Shown in pieces: positions 27,731 to 27,804 of a DNA stretch of 64,000 nucleotides. The DNA is taken from the NCBI RefSeq assembly GCF_030052815.1, contig NC_079496.1, positions 66,577,652 through 66,641,651 of the forward strand, given 5' to 3'. A program made the translations under genes and the position numbers. Positions within the stretch are counted from its first letter, which is position 1. Each line of letters begins with the position of its first letter. The notes below the pieces were generated by a model. That model worked only from the letters and a program-made list of their open reading frames with translations, had not been told where the DNA came from and searched no databases. Source of the DNA: Hevea brasiliensis (Eukaryota > Streptophyta > Magnoliopsida > Malpighiales > Euphorbiaceae).

Positions 27731-27804
27731 GTAAACAATTGAACCAATTGAATTAATACAAATATTGAACTGAAATGATAACAATAACATGAAATATATG
27801 TCAG
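27731..27804 (+). other. candidate intron inside gypsy-B integrase (74 nt, GT...AG)
   Basis: After CAG the sequence reads gtaaacaattgaacc..., is AT-rich, and ends aaatatatgtcag before gtccttgaggatatg. Removal joins VIQ to VLEDMLRSCVIEFEGSW in phase 0, the expected integrase sequence. A ctgaaatg stretch about 34 bases before the acceptor could serve as branch site. Gypsy-A has the same segment at 985-1059. Splicing is inferred, not shown. Confidence 0.7.

What the first reader, a model, noticed from the sequence alone, without database searches (positions are those of the whole stretch)
27731..27804. Candidate intron inside the integrase gene of a Tekay-like retrotransposon, conserved in two elements
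Both gypsy-B (27731-27804) and gypsy-A (985-1059, minus strand) have a short AT-rich segment bounded by CAG/gtaaac and tatgtcag/GTC inside integrase, between the catalytic Glu and LEDMLRSC. Its removal restores the expected integrase frame in phase 0. Read through, Pol stops after VIQVNN and lacks the integrase C-terminus and chromodomain. The two elements are separate insertions with divergent truncated LTRs, so the segment has been kept by the family. A spliced message would give chromodomain-containing integrase, while unspliced RNA would serve as genome. Ogre elements are known to carry an intron in pol, but between protease and RT; I do not recall one here in chromoviruses.
Basis: partly seen in the sequence, partly recalled or inferred. 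Interest (0 to 1): 0.8.

Follow-up and report, generated by a model that had tools for sequence, protein, structure and literature searches.

The report
Probable intron inside retrotransposon integrase gene
A plant jumping gene, perhaps from rubber tree or a relative, seems to carry a tiny intron in the middle of its integrase gene, so that the complete integrase could be made only after splicing, while the unspliced RNA would be the form copied into new insertions.

Summary
The segment is real at the stated coordinates (B 27731-27804, 74 nt; A 985-1059 minus, 75 nt). It starts GTAAAC, ends TGTCAG, is 23-24% GC (B's flanking exons 43-45%), has stops in all three frames of both copies, and cuts integrase four residues after the presumed catalytic Glu. 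Of 35 (B) and 46 (A) nearby GT..AG pairs, only this one is both phase-compatible and free of cost to conserved residues. Listed relatives lack it: 74 of 120, 59 of 120 and 3 of 120 hits hold both exon ends with nothing between. Only the two closest of 360 listed hits (91%, 95%) end in the segment's VNN. A and B both carry it, yet the downstream exon (integrase C-terminus, chromodomain) shows dN/dS 0.13 between them (upstream 0.20), so it was still selected as protein. A GT-AG intron gained in this lineage is the best reading; splicing itself was not seen. The closest named relatives are Hevea brasiliensis. Correction: B has complete 3.1-kb LTRs, 97% identical. Introns in plant LTR elements are known (Ogre, BARE1, EVADE); ten library searches listed none inside a Tekay-type integrase.

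The parts
27731..27804 (+). Candidate GT-AG intron of element B, 74 nt, phase 0, between the integrase codons CAG and GTC
985..1059 (-). Same candidate intron in element A, 75 nt
27077..27742 (+). Element B upstream integrase frame (zinc-binding domain and catalytic core up to the presumed catalytic Glu), running into the segment and stopping after VNN
   Evidence: PF17921; PF00665 below its cut-off
1048..1794 (-). Element A upstream integrase frame, stopping after VNN in the segment
   Evidence: PF17921; PF00665 below its cut-off
27805..28547 (+). Element B downstream exon: end of the catalytic core, SH3-like C-terminal domain, chromodomain; with small frameshifting indels in B
   Evidence: domains on the ORF 27930-28547
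331..984 (-). Element A downstream exon, open until a nonsense codon (331-333) in the chromodomain region
20646..23754 (+). 5' LTR of element B (TGTAAC...GTCACA), followed by a likely primer-binding site starting TGGTATCAGAGC
   Evidence: ends read from its printed sequence; that this site fits initiator tRNA-Met is recalled
28574..31683 (+). 3' LTR of element B
   Evidence: 89 differences in 3109 sites to the 5' LTR, K2P 0.029

Best explanation
The segment is a short spliceosomal (GT-AG) intron gained by one lineage of Tekay-like chromovirus. Shown: its placement, its absence from listed relatives, its presence in two diverged copies, selection on the downstream exon. Inferred: the host spliceosome removes it from part of the full-length RNA, giving a message for Gag-Pol with complete integrase and chromodomain. 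RNA that keeps it ends Pol with VNN, seven residues after the presumed catalytic Glu, so its integrase has the catalytic residues but lacks the rest of the core, the C-terminal domain and the chromodomain; this RNA is the one packaged and copied into new insertions, which is why the copies keep the intron.
For: Exact fit: 1 of 35 (B) and 1 of 46 (A) GT..AG pairs of 60-200 nt is in phase and deletes no conserved residue. Relatives: zero residues between the two exon ends in 74 of 120 (one search hits), 59 of 120 (one search hits) and 3 of 120 (one search hits), and no hit with both ends had anything between. P0001 and P0002 alone of 360 listed hits end in VNN. Three of six fetched relatives in prokaryote assemblies were read across the site at DNA level and lack the segment. 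Composition 23-24% GC against 43-45% in B's exons. 74 versus 75 nt and stops in all three frames, so the segment is not read as protein. dN/dS 0.13 in 223 downstream codons and 0.20 in 199 upstream codons; downstream 21 of 53 changes are nonsynonymous against 36.1 expected, as few in 0 of 5000 simulations. Branch-point-like CTAAT (A) or TTAAT (B) 49 nt before the 3' end.
Against: No transcript was seen. The segment is A-rich (48-50% A); its 27-28% T barely exceeds B's exons (25.2 and 22.6%), whereas plant introns are generally clearly more U-rich than exons (passage in PMC3735527). It is near the lower size limit for plant introns (recalled). DNA is in hand for only two copies; P0001 and P0002 are known as protein only. 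Both window copies are broken elsewhere, and stop-making changes are not depleted (downstream 2 against 2.1 expected, upstream 1 against 1.5), as expected if they arose after insertion. The selection argument fails if the segment spread between copies by recombination.
Confidence: 0.85

Rival explanations
1. The segment is a spacer that splits Pol into two cistrons. The second, starting at the ATG of MLRSC, is translated by reinitiation or from a separate RNA, without splicing.
For: The downstream frame is conserved, and close relatives P0122 and P0123 are listed as ORFs starting at exactly that Met.
Against: It would give a catalytic core cut in two that must reassemble (inference). It does not explain GT-AG borders at the homology-defined junction. 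A start at this Met is not diagnostic: 24 of 120 hits start there, P0122 and P0123 included, several of them Gossypium arboreum entries.
Confidence: 0.06
2. A disabling insertion was carried along by a non-autonomous lineage that uses integrase supplied in trans; nothing is spliced.
For: Both window copies are broken at other places, and no intact copy was available.
Against: Without splicing the downstream exon would be free to decay, but its dN/dS is 0.13, no higher than upstream, with A and B both carrying the segment.
Confidence: 0.05
3. Splicing is real but serves mainly as a mark for host silencing or as a brake, like the cryptic intron of fission yeast Tf2, rather than to make integrase.
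For: Passage in PMC7175516 on Tf2 siRNA that depends on splicing of a cryptic intron.
Against: Here the segment must be removed for the integrase frame to continue. Silencing was not tested.
Confidence: 0.04

Closest known systems
Ogre (Ty3/gypsy, Tat lineage) of pea and Medicago
   [quoted passage not shown] here it is 74-75 nt inside the integrase core
BARE1 (Ty1/copia, barley)
   Same: Small facultative intron; separate RNA pools for translation and replication (passages and title of PMC3735527)
   Different: BARE1 splicing shifts the frame and knocks out pol, leaving Gag; here splicing would complete pol
EVADE (Ty1/copia, Arabidopsis)
   Same: Functional intron giving a subgenomic RNA (passages in PMC12786077)
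   Different: Splicing makes a short Gag RNA; opposite effect on pol
CRR centromeric retrotransposon
   Same: Gypsy element with spliced transcripts (one sentence in PMC3735527); that it is a chromovirus is recalled
   Different: There splicing removes rt and makes two ORFs; here a short segment inside integrase
Intronless relatives in Gossypium and Xanthoceras
   Same: Same integrase; P0114 of Xanthoceras, 83% identical over 178 residues, also has the SH3-like and (below cut-off) chromodomain matches
   Different: Read without interruption across the site; P0114 is a gene model, so its own DNA could not be checked

Membership tests
Chromovirus (Ty3/gypsy with chromodomain) | RT-RH-integrase order with chromodomain after integrase | tested here: met
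   Order from ORFs with RVT_1 and RNase H in A's 1798-3204, integrase zinc-binding domain downstream, and Chromo PF00385 at 26.7 bits (cut-off 25.1) in B's 27930-28547
Tekay (Del) clade | Grouping with named Tekay elements in an RT or integrase tree | not tested
Long LTRs and the TGGTATCAGAGC site fit by recall. Del/Tekay dominates Hevea (PMC7353026 passages)
Spliceosomal GT-AG intron | GT..AG ends at the exact point where intronless homologues continue | tested here: met
Spliceosomal GT-AG intron | Branch point and U-rich or AU-rich body | tested here: inconclusive
   CTAAT or TTAAT 49 nt from the end; 76-77% A+T but A-rich, hardly more U-rich than the exons
Spliceosomal GT-AG intron | Spliced transcript | not testable with these tools
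   No RNA-seq or cDNA collection on hand
[quoted passage not shown]
   Segment lies in integrase of a chromodomain element

The most novel reading that the evidence does not exclude
A chromovirus lineage gained an intron inside the catalytic core of its integrase and uses retained versus spliced RNA as a switch: unspliced RNA is genome plus Gag-RT supplier with a truncated integrase, spliced RNA supplies chromodomain integrase. Because both copies with DNA in hand still carry the intron, the element must largely keep spliced RNA out of reverse transcription. If this family is part of the Del/Tekay expansion of rubber tree (not tested), the switch has accompanied a very successful element.
Probability: 0.5. 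Interest if true: 0.75.

Novelty: new variant of a known kind. Interest (0 to 1): 0.6.

Why it matters
LTR retrotransposons pass through RNA, so an intron should be lost at each round unless spliced RNA is kept out of the particle. An intron that a mobile lineage retains, in a place where its removal decides whether integrase is complete, makes the separation of translated and packaged RNA pools directly testable in a plant chromovirus. It is also an intron gain with intronless relatives to compare. The site, CAG|GTC with CAGGT repeated at both ends of the segment, bears on how introns arise.

Tried and rejected
Whole-genome count of copies with and without the segment: the same request to the genome search did not complete nine times. 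Viral contigs: the upstream piece found no relative, the downstream piece two weak loci at 30% that I did not use, a border pattern none, an alignment none. Prokaryote genome contigs: border pattern none; with an alignment, six loci, of which three (L003, L004, L007) could be read over the site and lack the segment; L005, L006 and L008 did not match my motif and were not read further.

Read-through of a stop was rejected: in A the segment is a multiple of three but has four in-frame stops; in B it is 74 nt. Origin by duplication of nearby sequence: the only significant match of the segment in the window is its other copy. The start of P0122 and P0123 at MLRSC was dropped as a proof of the intron, since other families' hits, some Gossypium arboreum, start there too. 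The protein P0239 from Hevea jumps from an LQEAL stretch to GSWDR; I took it as a gene-model artefact, which I did not test. In the selection test 24 downstream A codons (861-792) were dropped because B has frameshifting indels there, and 46 upstream codons (1794-1659) because of gaps and uncertain alignment; codons with stops or gaps were also left out of dN and dS.

Full report
What is there. Element B (plus strand) and element A (minus strand) are two Ty3/gypsy elements. Each has the same short segment in integrase: B 27731-27804, 74 nt, and A 985-1059, 75 nt. Probes for the two borders, up to 3 mismatches, match these two places only in the window. Upstream the Pol frame of both runs ...HPQTDGQSERVIQ (N for D in B) into the segment and stops after VNN. 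Downstream the frame of LEDMLRSC opens inside the 3' end of the segment, at 996 in A and 27793 in B. Pfam finds the integrase zinc-binding domain and, below its cut-off, the core domain on both upstream pieces; the Tf2-1-like SH3 domain on both downstream pieces; and a chromodomain just above its cut-off on B's downstream ORF and on the relative P0122. A's downstream piece, cut by a nonsense codon at 331-333, gave no chromodomain match.

Where it sits. The intronless relative P0114 aligned to solved integrases puts the junction right after DGQSERTIQ of Ty3 (7q5b) and after GKVERKNS of PFV (3l2q). The Glu of this motif is the catalytic Glu (recalled). Unspliced RNA would thus encode an integrase that ends four residues after that Glu plus VNN.

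Why an intron. First, relatives. I aligned the exon-1 end and exon-2 start separately to all 360 listed hits. Of the 120 listed (7894 of 7978 scored candidates passed the threshold; only 120 are shown), 74 hold both ends with zero residues between, 39 only the upstream end, 7 neither. Of the 120, 59 hold both with zero between, 59 only the downstream end, 2 neither. Of the 120, 3 hold both with zero between, 5 only the upstream end, 112 neither. No hit with both ends had anything between them. Among the upstream-only hits, ten run beyond the site: seven go on into a LEDM-like or LE stretch (P0005, P0013, P0021, P0066, P0085, P0101, P0115), P0057 is scrambled, and P0001 (91% identical to A, JGI) and P0002 (95%, Logan) end VIQVNN like A and B. 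So the segment is an insertion in one lineage at a fixed point. P0114, 83% identical over 178 residues, is contiguous, but it is an annotated gene model whose DNA I could not see, and it lacks a stretch elsewhere, so its annotators may have spliced it.

Second, borders. Of the GT..AG pairs of 60-200 nt near the site, 35 in B and 46 in A, 8 and 13 are phase-compatible, and one in each removes no conserved residue: this one. The context CAG|GTAA...TGTCAG|GT fits the plant consensus (recalled).

Third, composition and tolerance. The segment is 23-24% GC against 43-45% in B's exons. A and B differ at 7 of 74 positions plus a one-base indel. All three frames are closed in both copies; in A, where the length is a multiple of three, the Pol frame has four stops. 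A branch-point-like CTAAT (A) or TTAAT (B) lies 49 nt before the end. Against: the segment is A-rich and hardly more U-rich than the exons.

Fourth, selection. A and B both carry the segment, so unless it spread between copies by recombination, their divergence postdates it. dN/dS was 0.20 in 199 upstream codons and 0.13 in 223 downstream codons (downstream dN 0.035, dS 0.272). Of 53 downstream differences 21 are nonsynonymous against 36.1 expected, as few in 0 of 5000 placements; upstream 16 of 36 against 24.4, P 0.003. Stop-making changes are not depleted (2 against 2.1; 1 against 1.5), which fits decay after insertion. The LTRs of B differ at K2P 0.029, far below the A-B synonymous divergence of 0.175 to 0.272, so on B's side most changes probably arose while the lineage was still copying. 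The downstream exon was therefore under selection as protein in elements that have the segment. Splicing is the simplest way.

Element anatomy. B has LTRs 20646-23754 and 28574-31683, 97.1% identical, and TGGTATCAGAGC after the 5' LTR; no target-site duplication of 4 to 6 bases was found at the LTR ends, so LTR age (about 1.1 My at 1.3e-8, a recalled rate; 3.8 My at 3.89e-9, the rate given in PMC7353026) is tentative. A matches B over 5.5 kb at 87.7% and is cut by the window edge and near 5513. Both copies are broken: A by nonsense codons in pol, one of them in the chromodomain region, B by frameshifts.

Host. No taxon was given. The nearest named relatives are Hevea brasiliensis proteins: P0242, 92% over the RT-RH piece, P0169, 93%, and P0239, 86%, over the downstream piece. 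For the upstream piece the list shows no Hevea entry; the closest named one there is Xanthoceras P0114. PMC7353026 (passages) reports more than 9129 Del/Tekay elements (76.1% of RT domains) in Hevea and amplification 2 to 10 My ago. Whether this family is among them was not tested.

What is known. From passages: plant LTR elements generally lack introns, with Ogre and EVADE as exceptions (PMC12786077); BARE1, Bagy2 env and CRR are spliced (PMC3735527); the large survey PMC6317226 names two separated ORFs for Bianca and Ogre. Ten answered searches of the held library listed no report of an intron inside the integrase of a Tekay-type element. I saw listings (30 of 47 papers, 20 of 23, 12 of 17) and passages of the papers that I opened. 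The library lacks most subscription papers, so this is not proof of absence.

Mechanism. Shown: an insertion with intron borders in two diverged copies, and a coding exon behind it under constraint. Inferred: partial splicing by the host; spliced RNA makes complete integrase; unspliced RNA is packaged. The last point rests on the fact that both DNA copies, and by their protein ends probably P0001 and P0002, keep the segment, which a spliced template would have lost.

Verdict. A very likely intron, new in place and clade among a known kind, splicing not yet shown.

Noticed in passing
14233-20451 and 33722-40052: About 6.2 kb of direct repeat (91-94% identical) lies on both sides of element B, without ORFs of 150 aa or more and with internal repeats; possibly long LTRs of an older element into which B fell, or a duplication.
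   Followed up: no
20640-20646 and 31684-31690: No target-site duplication next to the otherwise complete LTRs of B, which may point to recombination between elements.
   Followed up: partly
5502-11611 (minus) and 59652-62257 (plus): Two related copia-type elements (my reading of the ORFs), about 92% identical, in opposite orientation.
   Followed up: no
31686-31961 and 32035-32310: A 276-base direct repeat, 97.8% identical, just outside the 3' LTR of B.
   Followed up: no
hits P0010, P0020, P0031, P0032, P0034, P0036, P0040, P0049, P0054, P0071, P0080, P0097: 12 of 120 listed relatives end right before the Gln codon at the intron site. Decay of CAG to TAG at a methylated CHG site would explain it (inference); it could make ORFs that start at MLRSC common without any intron.
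   Followed up: partly
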